From the NCBI GenBank assembly GCA_025617375.2, contig JAMYGW020000009.1:744001-808000 (forward strand): a stretch of 64,000 nucleotides of DNA, given 5' to 3'. This DNA comes from Acarospora socialis. Taxonomy: Eukaryota; Ascomycota; Lecanoromycetes; Acarosporales; Acarosporaceae. Position 1 is the first letter of the stretch; every line of letters starts with the position of its first letter. The translations under genes were made by a program, and so were the position numbers. Positions 1 through 38,905 of this stretch are shown in pieces. The notes under the pieces are model-generated. The model worked only from the letters and a program-made list of their open reading frames with translations, searched no databases and was not told the origin of the DNA.

Positions 1-2950
<2,950 letters not shown>

Positions 2951-3320
2951 TGTTGATGTATGGAATATAGTTGTGGAGGTTGTGAACTTTGTTTTGTGAT
3001 GATAGAGTGAGTGAATATGAGGGTGACAGGATTTACTAGAAAAAGTGCTGATTTTTTCATCTATGATGTGAATGGCACAGAGGTTTTTTTGGCACTGTAT
3101 GTTTCTGAAATGTCTCTGACTCAGAGCTAAGCTGCGCCAACAAAACCCAATTCAAACAATTACTCCACAACCACTTCCTCCTCCCAATTCTGCGATCTGT
3201 ATGAAAAAGGTGTTCCCTCTGTACAGAAGAACCCTTTCTCCAGTCCATTCTACAGTGAACCCCGACTCAAAAAGACTCAGACCCAATCTCAACCTCACCG
3301 CAAGCTCTCACACCAGCACC

Positions 3321-4217
3321 ATGTCCCCACGCGACCGTCGAGGCGGCGGCGGCGGCGGCGGCCCGCTCCCACGAGAAGTGACCGTCTCAAAAGCCATGAG
3401 CTTCGTGCTCCGACACGGCGCCGAGAAGGAAGGCATCAAGCTCGACGCGCAAGGATACGCCAACGTCGCGGACCTCGTAAGTCGGCATATCCCCTCCCTT
3501 CCGCTCCCCTCTCCGCTCCTCTGTTCTCCCCCCCCCCACCCCACCAGCACATTCTACAGTAATACGCTGACAAGACTTCCGCAACAGCTGGCATGGCACA
3601 AACTCCGTAAACTGCAAGTGACGCTGGCAGAGGTGCAGGAAATCGTGCGCAACAACGACAAACAACGCTTCGCCCTCATCGCCGCGCCACCTACCTCCGC
3701 ATCCGCCTCCGCCTCGCCCAACGACGGCGCCTCACAACTCTCCTCCGCCGACCCTACCACCTACCTCATCCGCGCCACCCAAGGCCACAGCATCCCCACC
3801 CTCACCTCCGCCTCCCTCTCCCTGACCCCGCTCACCCCCTCCACCGCGGGCCCCACAATCGTCCACGGCACCTTCCCCGCCGCCTGGCGGCTGATCCTCG
3901 CCTCCGGGGGATTGAAGCGCATGGGGAGGAACCACATCCATTTCGCGACGGACGTGCCGGACAACGAGCGGGGGGAGGTGGTGATTTCGGGGATGCGGAG
4001 GAGCGCGTCGGTGTTGGTGTGGGTGGATGTGCGGCGGGCGATGCAGGTGGGGGGATTGCGGTTTTGGAGGAGTGAGAATGGGGTGGTGTTGACGGAGGGG
4101 GATGAGAGGGGGATGGTGGGGTTGGAGTTTGTGGGGAGGGTGGTGCAGAGGGTGAGGGGACAGGGGGAGAAGGTGTTGTGGGAGGGGGCGAGGATGGTGG
4201 GGGAGGCGGTGGGTTAG
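3321..4217 (+). CDS. TPT1: tRNA 2'-phosphotransferase
   Basis: Transfers the splice-junction 2'-phosphate of ligated tRNA to NAD+ in the last step of tRNA splicing. Exons 3321-3476 and 3588-4217. The intron is 111 nt, phase 0, GTAAGT to CAACAG, and lies in frame without stops, so an unspliced reading looks open. The spliced protein has 261 residues. After a seven-glycine N-terminal run come the family marks: SKAMSFVLRHGA near residue 23, an NNDKQRF segment, RATQGHS near 114, and HGT...W...GL..MGRNHIHFA from about 145. The start is the ATG just before MSPRDRR, where homology begins. The TAG at 4215 is followed by 77 more in-frame codons (see findings). The C-terminal end is therefore less certain than the core. 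Confidence 0.9.
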   Translation: MSPRDRRGGGGGGGPLPREVTVSKAMSFVLRHGAEKEGIKLDAQGYANVADLVSRHIPSLPLPSPLLCSPPPHPTSTFYSNTLTRLPQQLAWHKLRKLQVTLAEVQEIVRNNDKQRFALIAAPPTSASASASPNDGASQLSSADPTTYLIRATQGHSIPTLTSASLSLTPLTPSTAGPTIVHGTFPAAWRLILASGGLKRMGRNHIHFATDVPDNERGEVVISGMRRSASVLVWVDVRRAMQVGGLRFWRSENGVVLTEGDERGMVGLEFVGRVVQRVRGQGEKVLWEGARMVGEAVG

Positions 4218-5108: not shown

Positions 5109-8100
5109 TCAAGCCCCAACGCCACAAAGACACCGACACTCCGACACGGGACATATCCGATGAAGCCCAAACCACTCCCTCGCGTGCCGCGCATGAAAGC
5201 CATGATTGCACACCATGCAGAAAGTCAAGAAACCCGCCATCAGGTCCTGCGTCCGGTCCAAGCCGCGCCCCTCCGCAGTTGCCGTCGTCGCAGCCACCAC
5301 CGCACCGCGCGATGACGGGTCCGGCACTCCAAGCCACTTCATGCAAACGCCGCAGCGAGGCAAACGGCGGCCGCATTTGAGACACACGGTTCCGGACGTG
5401 GGGCCGCGGCCGGCAAGGGGATGGTGCTCGGTGGGATGGACGCCTTCGTTGGTCGCGGCGTCGTCATCTTCGTTCTCGTTGTGTGCAAGAGGTCGTTCGC
5501 AGTAGGTGCAGCGGAGAGAGATTTGGCGGGGTGGGGGCGCGAGGGTGATGCGGCCGGCGGAGGTTCGGGAGAGTTTGGTGGCTTGGATGTCGAAGCGGAT
5601 GCGGGCGTGTTGCATGCTCCAGGATTGGATGGCGTGGCGATAGGTTTCTTTCCAGTGCGAGTGACGCGAGTCGGTGATGTAGCGAGGGCTGGTGAAAGAC
5701 ATTGCCAGGGCGGGCGTCTGGACATCGTTGGATATGTTGATGTAATTTTGGAACAGGTCCATGCCCTGTTCGGTCTGACCGGTTAAGACAATCCCTTCCA
5801 GGTCACCGTCTCTTATGGCAACGGTTGTTGCGGCGTCCAGATACTGTGTAAGTGCGCTGTCCGGCAGATGCATCAATGCAACGCCGACTCGATCGCTTAC
5901 AGGCAGTGACACATCGTCGAGGATGGACCACCAATCTTCACTGCCTACAAACGCCATAATCGCCCTGGCATATGGATCGTCTAGATCTCTGGCGATAGTC
6001 TTGCAAGTTTCGTTCCAGTCCTCGTTGTAATCTCCTTTCGCGAAGCCTCTGATGCCCATCGCTAGTAACTTGTGAGCGGACGAGGTTGGGCTACTCAGCA
6101 GCGCACTACAAGCAAATCCTGCATTTCCATGGAAGACTGCAAGCGCGGCCGCTTTGGTCCGTTGGCCTCGACGCACCAGGCTCTTCGCCAGCGTCTCGAG
6201 CTGTGTGGAAGACTGGGGTGAGCCGCAGCAGAAGAGGCAGAGTTGACGGAGTTCAGGGAACTGGGTGTCCGGTCCTTGTGCCTGGAAGTCGGGCAACTCA
6301 AGCTCCCGAACTAGCCCCTTGACCGCCTCAATGAAGTCCGGACAAGCTTCGGGATTCTCTTGGGTTATACGAGTCTCTGGATGAGAACCTTCGAGGCAGC
6401 TGAATCAGTAACTGTTTCGAGGAGAAGTACTTGACTGGATCTTACCAAGGTTATGGTGCCAGAGTCCATGTACCCCTAGATAGCTAAAGTCCAACCCGTT
6501 GCAGATCATACCACCGTCATTGGCATACGCCCGAGCACCTATGTACGGTCAATGAAATCCACAGCACCTTGAAGATCCAAGACCCACGGCCAATCCATAA
6601 CCACAGCTCCCGCAACCGACGATCATCAGCAAGGACCTGGATGTTTTTCTCGGTATCAAAAAGATAGCCTTCTTCACATCTTTGACGCTCGACAGCCGAA
6701 AGGGTAAGAGCCTCTTGTACTCTAAGTTTGTACCCGGGGGGTCCTATGGAAAGCAACTTCTGGTGAGCACCCTGGCTTGCCACCTGCATGATTCTTGACA
6801 TCCTTTTTACTCTTCTAGGAGTATTATCTGTTTCATTGAGTCCAAGCTTGGTCATGTCGAAAGCTATTTGGGCCGCTTCGATCTTTGCACGGAGGGTCTG
6901 GAGGGTCTCCGCAATCTTTCCCTGCAAGATAGGGCATTTCTCTCCGAAACTCCAGTGTTGTGCGTCTTGGATGTCTTCCACTCGGTGCAGGGATGTTCCA
7001 TTTGCAGGCTTATTTCGTGAACGACCTTGACTGACCTCACCGTAGCCGAAATTAGCCCTTGAGGAAAGGTCGAACATTGGAGGTCGTTGCGATAGTTCAA
7101 AAATACGGACATCATTTTTCCCACGTAATCCAACAATGAGATGACGGTAGAACCAATCGCCCAGAGTGACAAAGTCGAAAGACACAACGCGCTTGCACGC
7201 ATCATATCCGTGGTACTGACTATAGTATGGATACTGAACATCGTGGCTGGTCGTTGCATATAGCTGCTCTGGCGCCTGGTTGACGTCTGTCCGGTTGTTT
7301 GACTCCAAGTCTATCAGATTTGAATGTTCTCTGGCCAGCTCATAGACCTTGATCTGCCCAGAGCTAGAAAGCATTCCCAAACAACCTCGCTTCGTTTTAC
7401 TGAAGCGGACGCTCCAAATGTTGGAGGGATCCGTGCCGTTATTGCTGATGGGATTCTTTAGTTCTAGAGCAGCTTGTTCAGCTGAATGATGTCCTGATGC
7501 TAACGTAGTTGCACTGAATCGAGGACTGGAGCGCCGATCCCAGACACAAACTGTCGAGTCTCTGCCAGACACGGCGGAAGCAAAGTAATTCTCATCTTTC
7601 AAATCAATGGCAAGATTCTGAACGCAGCGTGTAGGGAATTGAATAGCAGGGTTACCCGGGGAGTCCCTTAAGTCGTAGATCCTGATGAACTGTCCTTTAA
7701 CACCAGTAACCAATGTCTCCGGCTGATCTGAGAAGAACTTGATGCTCGTAATGGTTTCATTGATGGCGTATTTCCTGAGCGGTTCCGAGACGCGTCTTTC
7801 ATATTCAAAGCTGGCAGACTTGCCGGCCGCGGCGCGCTGGGTGATGTCCCATATATTCAGACAGAAGTCGTTGCGGACCTTGTCCAAACCAGCTGCTAAG
7901 AGACCATTGGTACTGAACGTGACGGCGTTGCAAAGACGCGGCATCTTGACCGGAAGAGAAAAGGCATCTTGGGTGTCTCCGTTGATACGAAGAACGGTTG
8001 TCTCTCCATTCGATTGGCCGACAGCTACAAGAGCCTCATCTGTAGGAGACCAGTCAAACGCCCGAAAAGCCGGAACCTTGCTCTGCATGCATATCGTTTC

Positions 8101-8229
8101 ATATTTGAGCTCACTCCCTTCTTCAGATGTGACCTTGCAAAGCCTGAGAGTGCTTCCAGCAACATCAACGAGCAAGAAGCGTTGTTCATCAACCGTCGAA
8201 TGAGTTGACCACCGGATTGCGGTTTCCAT
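5109..8229 (-). CDS. SEA4: SEA/GATOR2 complex subunit Mios (Sea4) homolog
   Basis: Subunit of the vacuole/lysosome-associated SEACAT (GATOR2) complex, which relieves SEACIT inhibition of TORC1 in response to amino acids. Exons on the minus strand are 8229-6588, 6538-6446 and 6388-5109. Introns are 49 nt (GTGGGT to CATAG) and 57 nt (GTAAGA to CGAAG). The joined protein has 1004 residues. Residues 1-420 form WD40-type repeats. The small middle exon carries the conserved FSYLGVHGLWHHN block. Residues from about 867 to the end hold a Cys/His-rich RING-like zinc module with CTYC, CLKC, CGVC, CMVCNHGFH and CPVSECRC pairs. Length and order (propeller, helical middle, C-terminal zinc fold) fit Mios/Sea4. 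The first ATG is at 8229. Confidence 0.9.
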
Positions 8230-8940
8230 TGCCAAGAAACGGTCGAAAGTACCCCCATCCGATGGAATGGGAAATGGTCAAACGGAGGAAAGCTAGAAAC
8301 ATGCCAACGAAAAAGAGTAAGATTTTATCTCATAGCTACATCGTGTAGTCTCCCCTGGGTTTTTGCATACATGGCTGGAGCAAAAGCGATTACCCAACAA
8401 AGACTGATGGTAACATAAAAGGTCAAATTTGCTCATCAACCGTCCGCATAAGTAGGCCAGTCGTCATCGGATACATCTGTCTTGGTCTTGGAGCTGTGGG
8501 TCGTGGTATGTCGGTAGTACAAATACTGGAGACTCGAAGAAAAGTGTAGAAATTACCCGACGCTTGGGATGGGAATCAGGCCGGCAACCCTCGGCACAAG
8601 ACACGTCAACTTGCATCTATAATTGCTAGGGTTAGGAATCTACAGACATTGTTCAGAACGACAGTCCTTGTAATGCATGTAGTAAGTTCGTATATGGGAC
8701 AAAGTCTAGAGATGGTTGAGGACAGCGGAAAGGTACCGGCAAGATAGAACATTGTGTTTACACCACTATTCGAGGTCGGACTAACCTCCATGTTACACAA
8801 GATATAGTAAGTGACTTTGCATTGATCTAGCCATGTACAGATACGCTGTTCATATTGACAAGACGTTTCCAACGAATGTACAAGTCTTCTCAAATCAGTC
8901 CTGACCTCCTCGTAGTCCCAAACCTCCTCACATCAGCAGT
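8230..8940. other. Intergenic region between SEA4 and defensin gene
   Basis: Presumably the SEA4 promoter and the 3' untranslated region of the defensin gene. Short frames here lack homology or composition typical of genes. No repeat is seen. Confidence 0.5.
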
Positions 8941-9296
8941 CTAACCGAAGACGCAGGTGCAAGTACTAAGAAGTGCCAGTCAGTGTCTTCCCATGACCAT
9001 CGATCATTGTAGGAAGGACTCACGTGCGAAAGGTCCCAGCACAGTATCCACCGGTTCTTCCGCCCTTGAGGGTGATGCACTGCAACAGATCAGCTAAGTA
9101 GCGGCAAAGAATGGAGGTTAGAATATAATACATGATCGTTGCATGCCTGACGATTGAACGGGCAGCCGAAGCCCCGTTTGAGCATCTCGGGAGCTCGAAC
9201 GGCGAGCTCAGGGGCCGCCTCAGCTTCGGCCACCGGGGCAGCAGCGGCAAGAGTAAGGACGAAGGGAAGGAAGAGGGCGATCTTGGAAAGATACAT
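8941..9296 (-). CDS. Secreted CS-alpha-beta defensin, micasin/plectasin type
   Basis: Small secreted antimicrobial-type peptide of 81 residues. Exons on the minus strand are 9296-9132, 9079-9024 and 8965-8941. Intron 1 is 52 nt (GTATTA to TTGCAG, phase 0) and intron 2 is 58 nt (GTGAGT to CTTAG, phase 2, CTGAC branch site). Residues 1-20 are a signal peptide. Residues 21-41 are an acidic, Ala/Pro-rich propeptide ending in Lys-Arg, a Kex2 site. Residues 42-81 are a 40-residue mature peptide starting GFGCPFN. It has six cysteines spaced C-x6-C-x3-C-x11-C-x7-C-x-C and the GGYCAG gamma-core. This is the CS-alpha-beta pattern of fungal defensins such as plectasin and especially micasin. Known relatives act on bacterial cell walls, plectasin by binding lipid II. 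Activity here is inference. It stands alone, with no immunity or transport partner nearby. Confidence 0.92.
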
Positions 9297-9410
9297 AGTG
9301 CGTCTGTGTGGTTTTCTTAGGACGTGTTTGGTAAAAGGATTGTTGTTTGCTGTTGGATGTGGAGCTGTCTGATGAGATGAAGTACGGTCATGTTGGGAGA
9401 ACATCCCCTT

Positions 9411-9416
9411 CTTATA
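9411..9416 (-). promoter_or_regulatory. TATA-like box of the defensin gene
   Basis: TATAAG on the minus strand, about 115 nt upstream of the defensin ATG. The position would allow a leader of roughly 80 nt. This is motif and distance only. Confidence 0.4.
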
Positions 9417-11478: not shown

Positions 11479-12378
11479 TCATTCCTCGAAGAATCCACCA
11501 TCACTTCCGTCACCCTCATCCCGTTGTTCCCGAATCTCAACTCGCTCCTCTCGCCGACTCTTCTTCGACCTTATCGGAATCCCTTCACTTCGCTTCACCT
11601 TCACCTTATCCCCCGTCCCCGCAACCGCGCCCACCTCGTCCCCCACCTCCCCAACACTCCCAACATCCCCCGTACCATTCCGCAACGCCTCCAACGTCCC
11701 ATCCTCCATGCACCTCTCCACAACCTTCCAAAGCGGCAACCACTCCTTCTCCCCCATATGCCTAGCCACAACGGCCTCCTCGTCCTCCCCATCTCGCTTC
11801 TGCGGATAAAGACTCGTATACTTCTCATTCAGCGGACAATAGACCGCGTAATTGAGATCAACCTCCGCAACATGCACCCGCGCCTGCACCTCCCTCCTCT
11901 CCTCGTCATCCGTCGTGTCCGCCAGCCGCCGGCGGAGCTTCTTCAGATGCCGTGTCGCTTTCTGCCGTTCTGTGCGGTTCATCGGCCCAGATATCAGCCC
12001 CCCCCTGGCCCCTTTTGCACCGTAACAAGCGAAGATGTAGGGGGAAAAACACCCACCGAAAAACCGCACCATGTGATATTTCCCGATCATCTTCGCCCGC
12101 CGCTTCCCCTCCTCCACCGCCGTCAGGTCCTGCCTGTACCCCGCCAGCGCCCGCTCGTATTCGATGCGGGCGTCGGCGGGCAGGTGCGAGGCGTGGGCGA
12201 GGAGGCGGGTCGTGTCGCGGATCTTTTTGCGCAGGAGGTGCGTGGATGGTCGGGTTGAGGGGAGGGGGTCGGCGTTGCGGGCGGCGCGCTTGTGGGCGTG
12301 GTGGGAGTGGAGTTGGAGGTTTGCTTTGCGGGAGGCGTGCACGGAGGTGAGGTCGGGGTTGGGGCGTTTGGTGCCCAT
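11479..12378 (-). CDS. EFG1: rRNA-processing protein Efg1
   Basis: Nucleolar factor needed for early 18S rRNA maturation in the small-subunit processome. Exons on the minus strand are 12378-12057 and 11969-11479. The 87-nt intron (GTGGGT to GCACAG) is in frame and stop-free, so an unspliced reading inserts 29 foreign residues. The spliced protein has 270 residues. The conserved core spans roughly residues 48-135: LLRKKIRDTTRLL, LPADARIEYERALAGY, then GKYHMVRFFERQKATRHLKKL, which is continuous only after the intron is removed. The rest is charged and helical. The C-terminus is acidic and Gly/Glu-rich, with a basic KSRREER patch. ATG at 12378 is the first in frame. Confidence 0.9.
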   Translation of the reverse strand: MGTKRPNPDLTSVHASRKANLQLHSHHAHKRAARNADPLPSTRPSTHLLRKKIRDTTRLLAHASHLPADARIEYERALAGYRQDLTAVEEGKRRAKMIGKYHMVRFFGGCFSPYIFACYGAKGARGGLISGPMNRTERQKATRHLKKLRRRLADTTDDEERREVQARVHVAEVDLNYAVYCPLNEKYTSLYPQKRDGEDEEAVVARHMGEKEWLPLWKVVERCMEDGTLEALRNGTGDVGSVGEVGDEVGAVAGTGDKVKVKRSEGIPIRSKKSRREERVEIREQRDEGDGSDGGFFEE

Positions 12379-12825
12379 TGTAGCGAGGGGATTGAAGGGG
12401 TGCGTTGAGGGGGGAGATTTGATGGAGAGGAGTGTGGAAGTGGGATGCTGGTTTTAGGTTGGGTGAGTGGAGCGGTGTTTAACTAGGTTGCGGGGAGGCT
12501 GTAGAGACCTTTATGGCAACTCCGATGGTTGGTGAGCGAACTAGGGTAAGCTGTACACAGTATTCTTTGGCTAGGTAGGTAGTGAATTACTTTATTTGAT
12601 GCTTGAGCTTAAAGTGTCGTGTAGGTGGTGATGAAGTTCTATTTGAGCTTATGCCCGATAAAAAGAGATAGCATCGCCGTGCAGTTTCTGGTCCTCATGC
12701 TCTGGGCAACCCAGCAGAGCTCGGCGAGATATACGGAGAGCAGGCAAGTGAATTTCACAGTTTCTACCTCATTACCGGTATCAACACGACGCAGATCTTA
12801 CGGCTTCCTTTCCATCCGACCGACC
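12379..12825. other. Intergenic region upstream of EFG1
   Basis: 447 bp between two minus-strand genes. It should hold the EFG1 promoter and the 3' end of the DUF2306 gene. No motif stands out. Confidence 0.5.
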
Positions 12826-14946: not shown

Positions 14947-17900
14947 TCAGTCTTCAATCTGGCACCACGGGTGCTCCATGACTTGCGTAATCGTCAGGCG
15001 TTGATCCACATCTCTTTCCAGCATTGACTTGATCAGGTCAATGTTCTGCTCGCTCATAATCCATGGGATCCGAAGTTCACGATCCATGATTTCATCGATG
15101 CTGTAGAACGGGTTTTCCTTGTATACGATAGTGTAAAGAAGGATCCCAAGCGCCCAGACATCTTGCTCTTTGCCTCGGTAGGGCCTGCCTTGAAGGACTT
15201 CGGGCGCGGCGTAGTCTGTTCGGTAGCATGTTAGCCAACGCGTTTTCAGCTTGGAAGGCGGTGGACTACCGATGGTTCCAACAAAGACCTCAAAGGGTCC
15301 GTTCTTGATATACGCCGCGCTACCAAAATCGATGAGCTTGATCGCTCCCTCGCCGTCAAGGACGACATTCTCATCCTTGATGTCTCTATGCACTACCAAT
15401 GCTTTAGTGTGGAGATGGTGAACCGCAGCCACGACTTGTCTGAAAATGTTGCGGCATTCTGCCTCATCCATCGTGGAGCGCATCTCAATATAATCGAATA
15501 GATCCATGCCTGGAAGACCATGGGGTATCATCTCAATGTAGTAGTTGATGTCATCTTCGAAGAAATCCGACATCTCCACAATGTTGCGATGCTTCAGTCC
15601 GTCCCGCCGCAGATAGTCAAGGACGTGAATCTCTAACGGCACGGTACCGAGGCGGCGGTCACGGGTCCAGGTGTCAACAAGGATACGCCTCTTCGTCACA
15701 TATTTCAAGACCATCTTTTTCGTATTGTTTTTTCTATAACGTACGAGCTTGACCTGACCATAAGCACCTTGGCCCATTTCTTCAAGTATCATAAAATCTG
15801 AGATCGTCTTCTTCGCTGGCGGGCTTTGCACGCTCTGAGACGTCGCGGCCGAACTCGCATCCGCGGCTGCCCTTAGATCGGAGGCTGCAGAGATGGGGTG
15901 CGAAGCTGCTTCTTCGATCTGTCTTGTAAGTAATGCAGAGTTCGACTCACTTGAACTTGAGTCATCCGAGTCCAGTACCTCTGGTGGTATAGAGCTGACA
16001 ATTTGGCCGGGCGAGTGACGATGCGGTGTAGCGCACCTGGACAGCAACGGCGAAATCCCGCCAGCGTTGTTGGTGACCGAATGCAAGTGCCGCGAGTACG
16101 TAATCCACAAAGCGTATACTACCTCCGTCGTGGCAATACCACTCTTTTCGGTTGTCGTCCCATCTTCGTCCTCACTTCCTTCCTCGATAACGTTCTCATC
16201 GGGCACAAAGCTTTCACTCTTGACAACCCTCATCTGAACGTCAACCTTGATCTCCGCACCGTCCCGATGTCTCGCTGGTAAACCTGTTGGACGGAGGAAG
16301 ATCGCTGCTGCATTTGCGTTGCCTTCTCGGAGCGCTAGCAAAGCTCGTGCTCGACGGAAGCTATGTTCAGGAATGACGATACCATCAATGAGCTGAACTT
16401 TGTCCTCTTCAGTCAAGATGCGAAGCATTTGATCGAAGTCTGGGATGAATGCAGAAATAGGCAAACCATCCGGCCTTGCTTCACCGAACAAAGCAGCAGA
16501 GAATACAGCATTGGAACTAATGATCTCGAGACTGGATGCTGAGAGGACCATCATTCCGGCAATATGCGGAAAGCTTGAGACTCGCAGACTGCGTAGACCA
16601 TCGCCTCGAGTAACGGTTACAGGCATGTTGTTCCCATCACTGCTGGGCACGGTGAGTTGTTGGGTTTCCTTCAACTTTGCCCAGTCCACATTGTTGTCAG
16701 CATTCCCACTTCCTGGAAGATGAGGAATCAGTTTCCTAATGCTTATGTTAGGCTTCCATTTAATGTCACCCCAAATCGGTTCGACAGTTCCGGTAGCCTG
16801 TGTCACTTTATCGTTGTCGTCCAGCTTCACATAAACAACATCTTCGGATATCTCTTCAAGTACCCAGATCAGACCACCTTGTTTTTCTTTGACCCAAAGG
16901 CTAGCTGATCCTGTTGCCCCGTTACGCTTCTGTATAGGCACAACATCACCGCAGAGCAGGACGCCGCGCGACTTGGTGGGCATATGGTTCGAACCCGGTT
17001 TATTTGCTCGTTTCTTCGTAAAGCTAGATCCGCTCCCATCGTCGGTGTGCGCTCTGCGGGTGGAAGTCTGACGAGATGATGGTTTGCTAAGAAGTTGAGC
17101 CGTGATACCTTTACCCATCGTCGTCACTGGGCTTGGACTAGTACGCTGAGTCTTGGTATGTGAATGCTTCAATCTGACTTGAGCGTCTGAGCCTGGAGCC
17201 CTTAACCGTTCCTCAAGCCAAGCCCTCCGATCCTCTCGTACCACCTCGAGTATACCAAGCTTCCGCACCTCTGCCTTTGTAACACCGAAGACAAGACATG
17301 CAAGATCATTAGCAGCAAGTATAGTCCATGGTGCATGTGCCTCGGTCGTGAAAATTGCCTGTGGGGTCGGAACCCATCGGTGACCATGAACTGCTGTGCC
17401 TTGAGCAGTTGGGCCTCTCGCTAAAGAATGGCCAGAAGTAAGGAGACTGGTAGGTGAAAAGGATTGACTGCCATTTGCGCCGTCACCGGCGGCATATGGC
17501 CGCGCGAGAGTTTCTATGAGCTTGTTCTGAAGTGATAGCGGTGATGTATCCGTGTAGGTACGTTTAAGACTTGCCCGCCTCGGTGATAGAGAATCACTCC
17601 GCACCGGGGACTCATCTGCTGCAGTGGTAGTTTTTGAGAACGGGTCAGCCAAGACAGGAACTGTCGCTTTGCCAGGTGGCCCACTCGTTTCTACATCAGC
17701 CCTTCCATTGTCACCATTCAACAAAACATGGTCCTCCTTTGCAGTACTCGCCTCGCCTTGCTTGTCAAATCTAGTATCCTCTCTTGTTGGAACTTCTTCT
17801 GAGTTAGATGGACTTTCCGAACGTGGTGCGAAGCTGCTTTCAAAGATATTCAACCCGTCGACGTCCGCAGGTCCGGTGAGTGGCCCATTGATCGCACCGG

Positions 17901-18606
17901 CAAGGGATGCTTCTCCAGAGCCGTGACCCAGCAGATTCGCACGCGCTAGGAGCTCCATAATACTCTGTAACTCTACATCTCCGCTCACTTTAGCTTGTGC
18001 ACTAGCTATTCCTGGATTCTTCGCCGCCCATCCCAATCTATCCCGGATGAAGTCTATCGATTTCTGTAGAACGTTCTGGCGATCATGTAATAAGTCCTCT
18101 GTTTGATGCGCGAACGAAAAGGAATGAAGCGACTCGGATGGAAAGCGCGAAAGGTCTTCACTGAAATTCAGAGTTGGCGATGCGGGGCCGGCAGACGCGG
18201 TTGTGGGGGGCCCATGTGACGAAGGTAAGGGAAGTGTCATCGAAGCGGATCGCGGAGGTCGTGTGAGGTCGCTTGATGATTCTGGTGAGGATGGAAGTGT
18301 TGGAGCTCGAGATAGCACAGGCTGTTGTCGGATCCGTCGTAACCCAGAGGTTCCGAGTCCATGCTCGTGTTCTGGCATAAGCGGTGCTCTGGCCATAGCG
18401 TCATACTCCATGATCGAGCCAGCGTCAAATGAAAAGCGTATCCTTGACGTGTCGGCTGCCCTAACTGATTGCCCCAGTAGATTGCCTGTACTTCTGTTCT
18501 TAGGCAATGAGACATTGTCGGCTGGGTTCCTCGATTTACGCTGGTCCGATGTGGTGTGCTGGGCAGTGGAAGCACCTGCACATGACTCAAGATCAGCCTC
18601 AGACAT
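14947..18606 (-). CDS. PSK1: PAS-domain serine/threonine kinase
   Basis: Homolog of yeast Psk1/Psk2, nutrient-responsive kinases that direct glucose toward glycogen or cell wall. Exons on the minus strand are 18606-15270 and 15215-14947. The 54-nt intron (GTAGTC to AACAG) is in frame and restores FVGTIDYAAPEVLQG in the activation segment. The protein has 1201 residues. The N-terminal 400 residues are Ser/Pro-rich and disordered. A PAS-like region lies near 407-470 and a second near 680-760. The C-terminal kinase domain runs from about 935 to the end, with GQGAYGQV, HRDIKDEN near 1072, DFG and YAAPE. The start could instead be ATG 18671 with a 68-nt intron (18643-18576), which would swap the first residues. 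I could not separate the two models. Confidence 0.9.
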   Translation of the reverse strand: MSEADLESCAGASTAQHTTSDQRKSRNPADNVSLPKNRSTGNLLGQSVRAADTSRIRFSFDAGSIMEYDAMARAPLMPEHEHGLGTSGLRRIRQQPVLSRAPTLPSSPESSSDLTRPPRSASMTLPLPSSHGPPTTASAGPASPTLNFSEDLSRFPSESLHSFSFAHQTEDLLHDRQNVLQKSIDFIRDRLGWAAKNPGIASAQAKVSGDVELQSIMELLARANLLGHGSGEASLAGAINGPLTGPADVDGLNIFESSFAPRSESPSNSEEVPTREDTRFDKQGEASTAKEDHVLLNGDNGRADVETSGPPGKATVPVLADPFSKTTTAADESPVRSDSLSPRRASLKRTYTDTSPLSLQNKLIETLARPYAAGDGANGSQSFSPTSLLTSGHSLARGPTAQGTAVHGHRWVPTPQAIFTTEAHAPWTILAANDLACLVFGVTKAEVRKLGILEVVREDRRAWLEERLRAPGSDAQVRLKHSHTKTQRTSPSPVTTMGKGITAQLLSKPSSRQTSTRRAHTDDGSGSSFTKKRANKPGSNHMPTKSRGVLLCGDVVPIQKRNGATGSASLWVKEKQGGLIWVLEEISEDVVYVKLDDNDKVTQATGTVEPIWGDIKWKPNISIRKLIPHLPGSGNADNNVDWAKLKETQQLTVPSSDGNNMPVTVTRGDGLRSLRVSSFPHIAGMMVLSASSLEIISSNAVFSAALFGEARPDGLPISAFIPDFDQMLRILTEEDKVQLIDGIVIPEHSFRRARALLALREGNANAAAIFLRPTGLPARHRDGAEIKVDVQMRVVKSESFVPDENVIEEGSEDEDGTTTEKSGIATTEVVYALWITYSRHLHSVTNNAGGISPLLSRCATPHRHSPGQIVSSIPPEVLDSDDSSSSESNSALLTRQIEEAASHPISAASDLRAAADASSAATSQSVQSPPAKKTISDFMILEEMGQGAYGQVKLVRYRKNNTKKMVLKYVTKRRILVDTWTRDRRLGTVPLEIHVLDYLRRDGLKHRNIVEMSDFFEDDINYYIEMIPHGLPGMDLFDYIEMRSTMDEAECRNIFRQVVAAVHHLHTKALVVHRDIKDENVVLDGEGAIKLIDFGSAAYIKNGPFEVFVGTIGSPPPSKLKTRWLTCYRTDYAAPEVLQGRPYRGKEQDVWALGILLYTIVYKENPFYSIDEIMDRELRIPWIMSEQNIDLIKSMLERDVDQRLTITQVMEHPWCQIED

Positions 18607-36371: not shown

Positions 36372-38905
36372 ATGGATCCAGCATCATTTGTGGGTTTGAT
36401 AAGTGCCTCTGGCACCATTGTCTCTGCAATCACGTTCACCGTTAAAGGTCTCTCCGATCTTCGTGGCAGATATGCTGGTGCTGATCTGAGAATCCGACTC
36501 CTGATCGGAGAACTCTCCACTGTCAAATCTGCATTGAATCAGATCCGGGACTGGGTTGAGTTCAACCTTGTCGGCACACCCACGGAAGCGGAGCTAGTGG
36601 ATGGACTGCACGTCTCATTAGACGGGTGCAAAGTGGCCATGACTGTGCTGGCGGAAGAAGTTGCAGCTCTGACCGGAACAACTGCCTCGAACCCGGAGTT
36701 CAACTTGAGGTTCAGTGGTCGAGCCAAATATGCGTGGAGTGAAAGCAGCATGAAAGAGCACCAGGATCGATTGCACGCCCAGGTAGCTGCTTTACAGCTT
36801 TTGCTCCAGGCGGCTCAATGGTATGTGACTTCCTCGTAGCGTCTTTGAAGGTCTGTCTTTCTGATCCCGGTCAAAGTCGAACAAATACGGAGCAGGGGGG
36901 CCTCCTTCGAAGTCCGGCGAATAGGGTTATTATCCAAAAGGTTGTGGATGATACAAGTAGTCTGAAAGCCACGATGAGTGCCGCCAACTCGGAAGCGGGC
37001 TCTGCATCTGTACTCAGTCAGAATGACTCAGCCATTGATAGCAAAGGGTTTGAATGGGACGACGAGATTGTCAACGCTGCGACTTACCGGCGTGCCCTGG
37101 CGCACGCCCGATCAATGGCAAACATTGTCGGGACAACAGAGAAAAGAGAGATAGGCAGTGAGGCTAGACATCAGGCTGAGACTGATCGTTCAAACCTTCC
37201 GCTGCCGGCCAATGAGCTACCAAACTCGAAGCGAAAGGAAAAGCTTCTGCCAAACTGAGCTTTGGTGATGTCAGAACCAGTTGGAGCTTACCCTCAACGA
37301 AGCAGTCAAGTCCCGCAGTTCTTGTCCGGGTCAGGTCCAACACTGGGACGAAAGAATGTTTTCTCTCTTCCACCAATACCGGAGCGAAAGTCCTTTTGGT
37401 CCTCGCTAAGCGTCACTCAACGCAGTCGTCGCAGATCAGCTGGACAGCATGTAAATCAGTCTCTCCAGATACCGACAACGCCTACTTCTGGCTCTTTTCG
37501 CTGCATAAGGGAATCGCAGAGCAGCTTTCATATCAGCATCGGATCTAGCCCTACAGATGCCCTGGCGGCACCCGCGATCGTCAAGGCCGCGCAGGCAGGC
37601 TCAGTGGCGGAAGTCGAAGTGCTACTCGATCAAGGGGCTAATATAGAAGCGCGCCATCTCAAGACCAAACGTACAGCGCTCTCGGTCGCAGCCCACTGTG
37701 GGAATGTGGATGTCGTCCATCTACTGCTTCAGTACGGCGCCAAAGTTGATGTGCGTGATGCTTTTACACAGACACCACTGCACTTGGCCGCGTCTAGGGG
37801 TCACTATTTGGTTGTCGAATCGCTTTTACAGAATTTTGCGGACGTCAATGGCAAAGGACCCAATGACGAAACCCCTCTACGGATTGCGTCAGATAATGGC
37901 TATATTGACGTTGTGGAGCTCTTCCTGGGAAATCGAGCCAAGGTCAATGCTAGGGATTGCCAACAGCGTACAGCCCTTCATATGGCAGCAAAGCGAGGAG
38001 ATGAAGCCATGGTCAACCTTCTCGCGAGCAACGGTGCCCACCTGGATGCCAAAGATGCGAGTTTCATGGCTGCAATTCACTATGCATCCGAAGAGGGTCA
38101 TGATGGGGTGGTGAATCTGTTATTGAGTAAGAAAGCAGACATCAACGCGCCTGGCAAGGAACTGCAGACTCCGTTGGCTTGTGCTTGTTCGGCCGGTCAA
38201 ACTCAGGTCGTGGAGCTACTTTTGAAGAAGAAGGCATCAACGAAGCATAAATCAGAAGGAGACATGAACCCACTGCACTTGGCATGCTCCAACGGCCACG
38301 TTGAAGTTGTCGCCCTCCTGCTGCAGAAGCGCTTGGCGGTCAATTGGCCCAACAAAGACGGCCTGACACCCTTACATTTCGCTGTGAGGTCGGACAGATT
38401 CGCGGTCGTTGAGCTTCTGCTTAGGAAGGGCGCCTTGATTGAAGCAAGGTGTCGGTCCACGCTCGGCCCACTCCACTACGCCTGCCGTGAGGCCAGTCCA
38501 GATGTCGTTCAGCTTCTGCTGAGCTCCGGTGCAGATCTCGAAGCCGAGGATAAATCTGCCAGACGACCTCTACACTTTGCTGTCACTCGTGGTTCAGCTC
38601 CGCTGGTCGAGTTATTAGTGCTGCGAGGGGCTGATACAGAAGCCCAAGACGCAGCAGGACATCGCTCGTTGTATCTAGCGAGTGCTCTTGGCCATCTGGC
38701 TATAGTGAAGACGCTTTTGGACAGCGGCTCCCCTATGATGGCCAAGGCCTCGGTAGGACCGGCACGCAGTGGCAAGGGTGATGGTTGGAGGAGCGTACTA
38801 CCTGGTTATGACGGTCAAGACAGCCGCAACAACGAAAGAGGTGGCGATCTGAGAGCACAGATCAGCGCGCCCATCATGGCGGAGAATTCGCTAGGGTGGC
38901 ATTGA
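36372..38905 (+). CDS. Helo-like N-terminal domain plus 12 ankyrin repeats
   Basis: Proposed exons 36372-36820, 36877-37157 and 37260-38905, giving 791 residues. The N-terminal 150 residues (MDPASFVGLISASGTIVSAI..., KGLSDLRGRYAGADLRIRLLI) match the fungal Helo-like/STAND N-terminal domain found on NLR-like and ankyrin proteins. A disordered linker follows. About 12 ankyrin repeats run from 345 to 745, with motifs such as TPLHLAASRGH, ALHMAAKRGD, NPLHLACSNGH and RPLHFAVTRGS. There is no NACHT or NB-ARC domain between them. Intron 1 is 56 nt (GTATGT to CAAAG). Intron 2 (102 nt, GTGAGG to CTGAG, phase 1) removes an in-frame TGA at 37256, and both sides lie in the same frame. Role is unknown; such architectures are linked to fungal self/non-self or scaffold functions. 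Confidence 0.75.

What the first reader, a model, noticed from the sequence alone, without database searches (positions are those of the whole stretch)
8941..9296. Uncalled three-exon fungal defensin of the micasin/plectasin type
The mature peptide is split over three exons by 52- and 58-nt introns, so single-ORF scans miss it. Spliced, it gives a signal peptide, an acidic propeptide ending in Lys-Arg, and a 40-residue peptide starting GFGCPFN. It has six cysteines in the CS-alpha-beta pattern and a GGYCAG gamma-core. As I recall, micasin starts with the same seven residues. The spacing before the fourth cysteine is x11, about two residues longer than I recall for micasin, so the loop is different. 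This is a strong candidate for an undescribed antibacterial peptide.
Basis: partly seen in the sequence, partly recalled or inferred. Interest (0 to 1): 0.85.

Follow-up and report, generated by a model that had tools for sequence, protein, structure and literature searches.

The report
Fungal antibacterial defensin gene, three exons
This stretch of fungal DNA holds an intact, intron-split gene for a small defensin of a kind already known from other fungi, where tested relatives stop bacteria from building their cell wall; it looks like a good new member rather than a new kind of thing.

Summary
On the minus strand, 9296-8941, exons of 165, 56 and 25 nt with GT-AG introns of 52 and 58 nt give an 81-residue precursor: hydrophobic leader, acidic propeptide ending Lys-Arg, and a 40-residue peptide with six cysteines spaced 6-3-11-7-1. 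Of 1205 intron combinations from that ATG (346 distinct proteins) one gives the defensin cysteine pattern. Of 100 shuffled windows, none gives it with leader and Lys-Arg. The peptide passes Pfam's Defensin_2 cut-off (41.6 against 20.4 bits); its best relatives of solved structure are eurocin (E 5.5e-10) and micasin (E 9.1e-10). Intron phases and places are those published for micasin and some other fungal defensin genes. No close paralogue was found in the 31-Mb genome. Likely action: secretion, cleavage after Lys-Arg, and binding of Lipid II in Gram-positive bacteria. That is inferred; expression, fold and activity were not tested. A new member of a known kind.

The parts
9411..9416 (-). TATA-like box (TATAAG), about 115 nt upstream of the ATG
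   Evidence: read by eye; promoter role inferred
9132..9296 (-). exon 1: leader, acidic propeptide ending KR, mature residues 1-14 (GFGCPFNRQACNDH)
9080..9131 (-). intron 1, 52 nt, phase 0, between His14 and Cys15 (helix region by homology)
   Evidence: same phase and region as stated for micasin and others
9024..9079 (-). exon 2: mature residues 15-32 and the first two bases of codon 33; holds GGYCAG
8966..9023 (-). intron 2, 58 nt, phase 2, in the c-loop between the fourth and fifth cysteines
8941..8965 (-). exon 3: last base of codon 33 to Gly40, with the fifth and sixth cysteines, stop TAG

Best explanation
An intact gene, without close paralogue in this genome as far as searched, for a secreted fungal defensin of the ancient invertebrate type (eurocin/micasin branch, GXGCP subfamily). 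Shown: gene structure, cysteine framework, family match, intron places. Inferred: the precursor is secreted, cut after Lys-Arg by a Kex2-type protease, forms three disulfides (1-4, 2-5, 3-6) in a CS-alpha-beta fold, and kills Gram-positive competitors by binding the pyrophosphate region of Lipid II through its N-terminal GFGC, the helix histidine and the fifth cysteine, blocking cell-wall synthesis.
For: Pfam Defensin_2 1.2e-10, 41.6 bits against cut-off 20.4. PDB phmmer: eurocin 5.5e-10, micasin 9.1e-10. In alignment A1 of 7 peptides (some given only as the stretches printed) G1 F2 G3 C4 P5 C11 H14 C15 G25 C27 C35 C37 are invariant. The Lipid II hydrogen-bond set modelled for Pyronesin4 from plectasin (N-terminus, Phe2, Gly3, Cys4, His18, Cys37; passage of PMC8877149) corresponds to F2, G3, C4, H14, C35 here. 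A passage of PMC8877149 says that, of the few tested fungal defensin-like peptides, only those resembling animal AITDs (such as eurocin and micasin) were antibacterial. PMC12284004 passages infer conserved Lipid II binding across GXGCP peptides and cite eurocin as a Lipid II binder. [quoted passage not shown] Net charge about +2.8. Chance control: 0 of 100 shuffles with the full set of features.
Against: No transcript, mass spectrum, fold model or activity datum. Of nine plectasin residues tied to Lipid II in PMC12284004 (F2, H18, K20, I22, K23, Y25, K26, Y29, Y40), by alignment A1 only F2, H18 and Y29 are identical and I22 is conservative (Leu); K20 is Ile, K23 falls on Gly (a Lys is next to it), Y25 is Arg, K26 is Thr, Y40 is Val with Phe next to it; eurocin shares the Arg and Thr. 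Plectasin's Gly33, reported as indispensable in plectasin though Ala in the active Pyronesin4, falls on a gap in A1. More than 60% of putative fungal defensins are anionic and some tested peptides lack antibacterial activity (PMC6181372 passage). Intron 1 has a weak donor. The intron layout is not exclusive to the micasin group: the same section gives it to all fDEF8 genes and three fDEF2 genes.
Confidence: 0.85

Rival explanations
1. A real defensin-fold peptide that is not antibacterial: it regulates fungal growth or serves another role, as reported for some fungal defensin-like peptides.
For: PMC5234102 (part 1 of 4 read) says that some classical insect-type fungal peptides gained growth regulation and lost antibacterial function, and that most Zymoseptoria peptides might have lost activity; several plectasin Lipid II residues are replaced here.
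Against: The peptide is of the GXGCP/AITD type, whose tested fungal members are antibacterial according to the passages seen; the N-terminal Lipid II set is intact.
Confidence: 0.12
2. A silent or mis-spliced gene: defensin sequence intact but not expressed.
For: Weak donor GTATTA at intron 1; no transcript data.
Against: No stop or frameshift in the three exons; TATA-like box about 115 nt upstream; intron phases and places match relatives.
Confidence: 0.05
3. Chance assembly of cysteine codons by choosing introns freely.
For: The bare cysteine pattern does occur in shuffled windows (mean 0.49 products per shuffle) and in two other fetched loci without a family match over cut-off (L009, L015).
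Against: Pfam and PDB E-values from 1e-10 to 1e-9 stay very small after allowing for 346 distinct proteins; 0 of 100 shuffles give leader, KR and pattern together.
Confidence: 0.001

Closest known systems
Eurocin (PDB 2LT8)
   Same: Best PDB hit, E 5.5e-10; GFGCP start; cysteine spacing 6-3-11; identical GGRTGGYCAG; 62% identity in alignment A1
   Different: c-loop x7 here against x10; net charge about +2.8 against -0.1; eurocin's gene structure was not seen
Micasin (PDB 2LR5)
   Same: E 9.1e-10; same first seven residues; 6-3 and 7-1 spacings; phase 0 and phase 2 introns in helix region and c-loop
   Different: loop before the fourth cysteine x11 here against x9; 60% identity over the 35 residues given
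Plectasin (PDB 1ZFU)
   Same: GFGC start, His before the third cysteine, GGYCA
   Different: E 0.017 only; N-loop x6 here against x10; 46% identity
Actinodefensin (NCBIfam NF038042)
   Same: E 6.1e-10, 39.5 bits for the precursor; actifensin is placed in the same GXGCP subfamily
   Different: below the curated cut-off of 65 bits; a model of bacterial peptides

Membership tests
CS-alpha-beta defensin (Pfam Defensin_2) | score over curated cut-off | tested here: met
   41.6 bits mature, 38.8 precursor, cut-off 20.4
CS-alpha-beta defensin (Pfam Defensin_2) | framework C...CX3C...C...CXC | tested here: met
   C4 C11 C15 C27 C35 C37
CS-alpha-beta defensin (Pfam Defensin_2) | helix-sheet fold with disulfides 1-4, 2-5, 3-6 | not testable with these tools
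Supported only by similarity to solved structures
Ancient invertebrate-type / GXGCP defensins | GXGCP start, short N-loop, His before the third cysteine | tested here: met
   GFGCP, x6, H14-C15; definition from PMC12284004 passages
Ancient invertebrate-type / GXGCP defensins | binds Lipid II, inhibits Gram-positive bacteria | not testable with these tools
   needs the peptide
Micasin-type fungal defensin genes | two introns, phase 0 in helix, phase 2 in c-loop | tested here: met
   layout shared with fDEF8 and three fDEF2 genes
Micasin-type fungal defensin genes | secreted precursor with propeptide and basic cleavage site | tested here: inconclusive
   hydrophobic leader (11-residue Kyte-Doolittle up to 2.39), propeptide net charge about -1.2 from an assumed cut, KR present; no signal-peptide predictor was available
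Actinodefensin (NF038042) | score over curated cut-off of 65 bits | tested here: not met
   39.5 bits

The most novel reading that the evidence does not exclude
The peptide joins eurocin's 6-3-11 front half, with the same GGRTGGYCAG, to micasin's x7 c-loop and micasin's intron places, in a fungus that may lie outside the lineages known for them (organism not identified). It could be an intermediate showing that eurocin-type and micasin-type defensins descend from one intron-bearing ancestral gene, and a cationic eurocin-like antibiotic with a spectrum of its own.
Probability: 0.3. Interest if true: 0.4.

Novelty: new member of a known kind. Interest (0 to 1): 0.27.

Why it matters
Plectasin, eurocin and micasin are studied antibacterial leads; the plectasin derivative NZ2114 reached clinical trials (start of the abstract of PMC13139365, listing) but failed to progress (PMC12284004 passage). 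A cationic peptide that mixes eurocin and micasin features adds a natural variant for testing which loops govern potency. With exons of 56 and 25 nt it also shows how such genes can escape single-frame scans. It does not open a new class.

Tried and rejected
Paralogues in the same genome. The Pfam Defensin_2 profile finds 1 place, below cut-off (17.5 bits, E 0.185, contig C13). The frames read there show a CX3C stretch without the rest of the framework, and the splice scan of that locus (L002) gives 0 products, so it is probably chance. That profile search works exon by exon and did not list the real gene either, so it is a weak negative. GFGCP codon pattern: 8 places against 11 for the reversed control. 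GYCAG codon pattern: 11 places against 7. Unspliced frames at these places were read by eye, then all 25 fetched loci were scanned for spliced products. The window gene appears in 5 of the 25 (L001, L008, L023, L024, L025, overlapping copies of one place); two other loci hold the bare cysteine pattern, L009 (18 products) and L015 (8 products); the remaining 18 give none. One L009 product touches Pfam Stig1 below cut-off (19.3 against 24.1 bits); two L015 products have no Pfam match at E up to 1, and its C-terminal piece has no PDB match at E up to 10. They are not counted as defensins; L015 is listed under Noticed in passing. The whole precursor by translated search matches 2 places, exons 1 and 2 of this gene. 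So 'no close paralogue' is supported, 'only defensin of the genome' is not.

Relatives elsewhere: none confirmed in viral contigs (80 pattern matches) or GTDB genomes (594). These collections are of viral, bacterial and archaeal DNA, so this says little. No text match for four peptide fragments in 5.39 million held papers; an earlier search with a badly chosen term was mostly noise (40 of 214 papers listed); no paper holds both 'defensin-like peptide' and 'Chaetothyriales'; none met three of four gene-mining terms.

Upstream start: an in-frame ATG at 9404 would add 36 residues. It lies 6 nt after the TATA-like box and would bury the leader, so it is rejected by inference.

Organism: not named. 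rDNA was found; from memory the ITS resembles that of filamentous ascomycetes, perhaps Chaetothyriales, which was not tested.

Structure prediction was not attempted, for the reason given in Membership tests.

Full report
What is in the sequence. On the minus strand of the window an ATG at 9296 opens a gene of three exons, 9296-9132, 9079-9024 and 8965-8941, with introns of 52 and 58 nt, both GT...AG. The spliced frame encodes 81 residues: a hydrophobic leader, a propeptide with net charge near -1.2 (from an assumed leader cut) ending in Lys-Arg, and a 40-residue peptide, net charge about +2.8, with cysteines at 4, 11, 15, 27, 35 and 37.

Is it more than chance? From this ATG, 1205 combinations of one or two GT-AG introns of 40-120 nt end in a stop and give 346 distinct proteins; 1 has the CS-alpha-beta cysteine pattern. 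Over the whole window, both strands, every ATG, 0 to 2 introns, 2 products match, both this gene with different starts; 1 of the 2 has leader and Lys-Arg placed as required. In 100 dinucleotide-preserving shuffles 0 give the pattern together with a leader-like stretch and Lys-Arg, and 0 with G[FYW]GC. The bare six-cysteine pattern alone does arise in shuffles (mean 0.49 products at 0.13 places per shuffle, up to 29 products in one), so the pattern by itself would not have been enough.

What it is. The mature peptide matches Pfam Defensin_2 at 1.2e-10 (41.6 bits, cut-off 20.4). The other four families listed for it, three of them scorpion-toxin-like or gamma-thionin and one a DUF, lie below their cut-offs. 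In the PDB the best of 19 distinct sequences at E up to 1 are eurocin (5.5e-10) and micasin (9.1e-10), then BmKDfsin3, an 'Arthropod defensin' (2ru0) and MGD-1; plectasin stands at 0.017, and the weakest of the 19 is a urease. The bacterial actinodefensin model hits the precursor at 6.1e-10 but below its cut-off. In an alignment of seven peptides twelve positions are invariant: the six cysteines, G1, F2, G3, P5, H14 and G25.

The loop. That is correct, but eurocin also has x11 and shares the ten residues GGRTGGYCAG. The peptide combines eurocin's 6-3-11 spacing with micasin's 7-1.

Gene structure as further evidence. 'The Fungal Defensin Family Enlarged' (PMC4165938; outline with abstract, part 1 of 2 of section 4, and section 6 read; [quoted passage not shown] Here intron 1 is phase 0 after mature residue 14, between the second and third cysteines, and intron 2 is phase 2 in codon 33, between the fourth and fifth. 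The phases were not used in choosing the model and agree with it.

Expression signals. A TATAAG lies at 9416-9411, about 115 nt before the ATG (by eye), and branch-like CTGAT and CTGAC sequences lie near the 3' ends of the introns (by eye; the consensus is recalled). The donor of intron 1, GTATTA, is weak. No expression data were available.

Copy number and surroundings. The whole-precursor search of the 31.1-Mb genome finds only exons 1 and 2 of this gene. Two codon-pattern scans and a splice scan of the fetched loci give no second peptide of this family, though two other loci (L009, L015) hold the bare cysteine pattern without a family match over cut-off. Apart from the frame that contains exon 1, no stop-to-stop frame of 150 aa or more lies between 8277 and 10744. 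Its neighbours look like housekeeping genes: two frames with MIOS-type domains (5112-6404 and 6520-8277), Efg1 (11482-12453), and further off a Tpt1-type RNA 2'-phosphotransferase (3120-4214). In the 20 of 69 listed frames that were scanned, no further defence or secondary-metabolism family was recognised; nothing right of 49390 was scanned.

How it most likely works. A passage of PMC8877149 (12 of 16 places seen) describes the network of the N-terminus, Phe2, Gly3, Cys4, His18 and Cys37 with Lipid II, modelled for Pyronesin4 on plectasin. These places are kept here (F2, G3, C4, H14, C35). Passages of PMC12284004 (12 of 32 places seen) define a GXGCP subfamily in bacteria, fungi and invertebrates, infer conserved Lipid II binding, and cite eurocin as a Lipid II binder. 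Against this, of nine plectasin residues listed there only three are identical here and one conservative; two of the replacements, Arg and Thr in the loop, are the same in eurocin; and plectasin's Gly33 has no counterpart in the alignment. I therefore expect an antibacterial Lipid II binder, but this step is inference.

Verdict. An intact, correctly predicted gene for a fungal defensin of the eurocin/micasin branch: a new member of a known kind, useful but not surprising. The species and any existing annotation are unknown to me.

Noticed in passing
L015:676-864 (minus strand; contig C3 near 1.2077 Mb): A frame ending in a 39-residue piece with C-x10-C-x3-C-x6-C-x9-C-x-C, whose last exon is reached over a GTAAGT intron of phase 2 between the fourth and fifth cysteines, with a short tandem repeat upstream. 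It has the defensin-like framework but no Pfam match (E up to 1) and no PDB match (E up to 10). It could be a divergent defensin-like peptide or chance.
   Followed up: partly
L009, plus strand from about 2370: A cysteine-rich frame with repeated CSAGACxCTNSG units, near Pfam Stig1 but below its cut-off.
   Followed up: partly
L003 about 1852-2074 (minus strand), and the same place in L004: The SSU rRNA 3' end seems to carry an insert of about 220 nt before GTAGGTGAACCTGCGG (by eye; the usual end is recalled), and the SSU match covers 1112 bases for 624 model positions in L003, suggesting further inserts; no intron family reached its gathering score.
   Followed up: partly
L003 and L004: The two rDNA copies differ by many single-base insertions or deletions, also inside 5.8S (154 against 151 bases), which looks like assembly error or a degraded copy.
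   Followed up: no
window 37259-38902 (+): A 548-aa frame with many ankyrin repeats.
   Followed up: no
window 14950-18606 (-): A 1219-aa frame with a C-terminal protein kinase domain and a DUF7891 domain.
   Followed up: no
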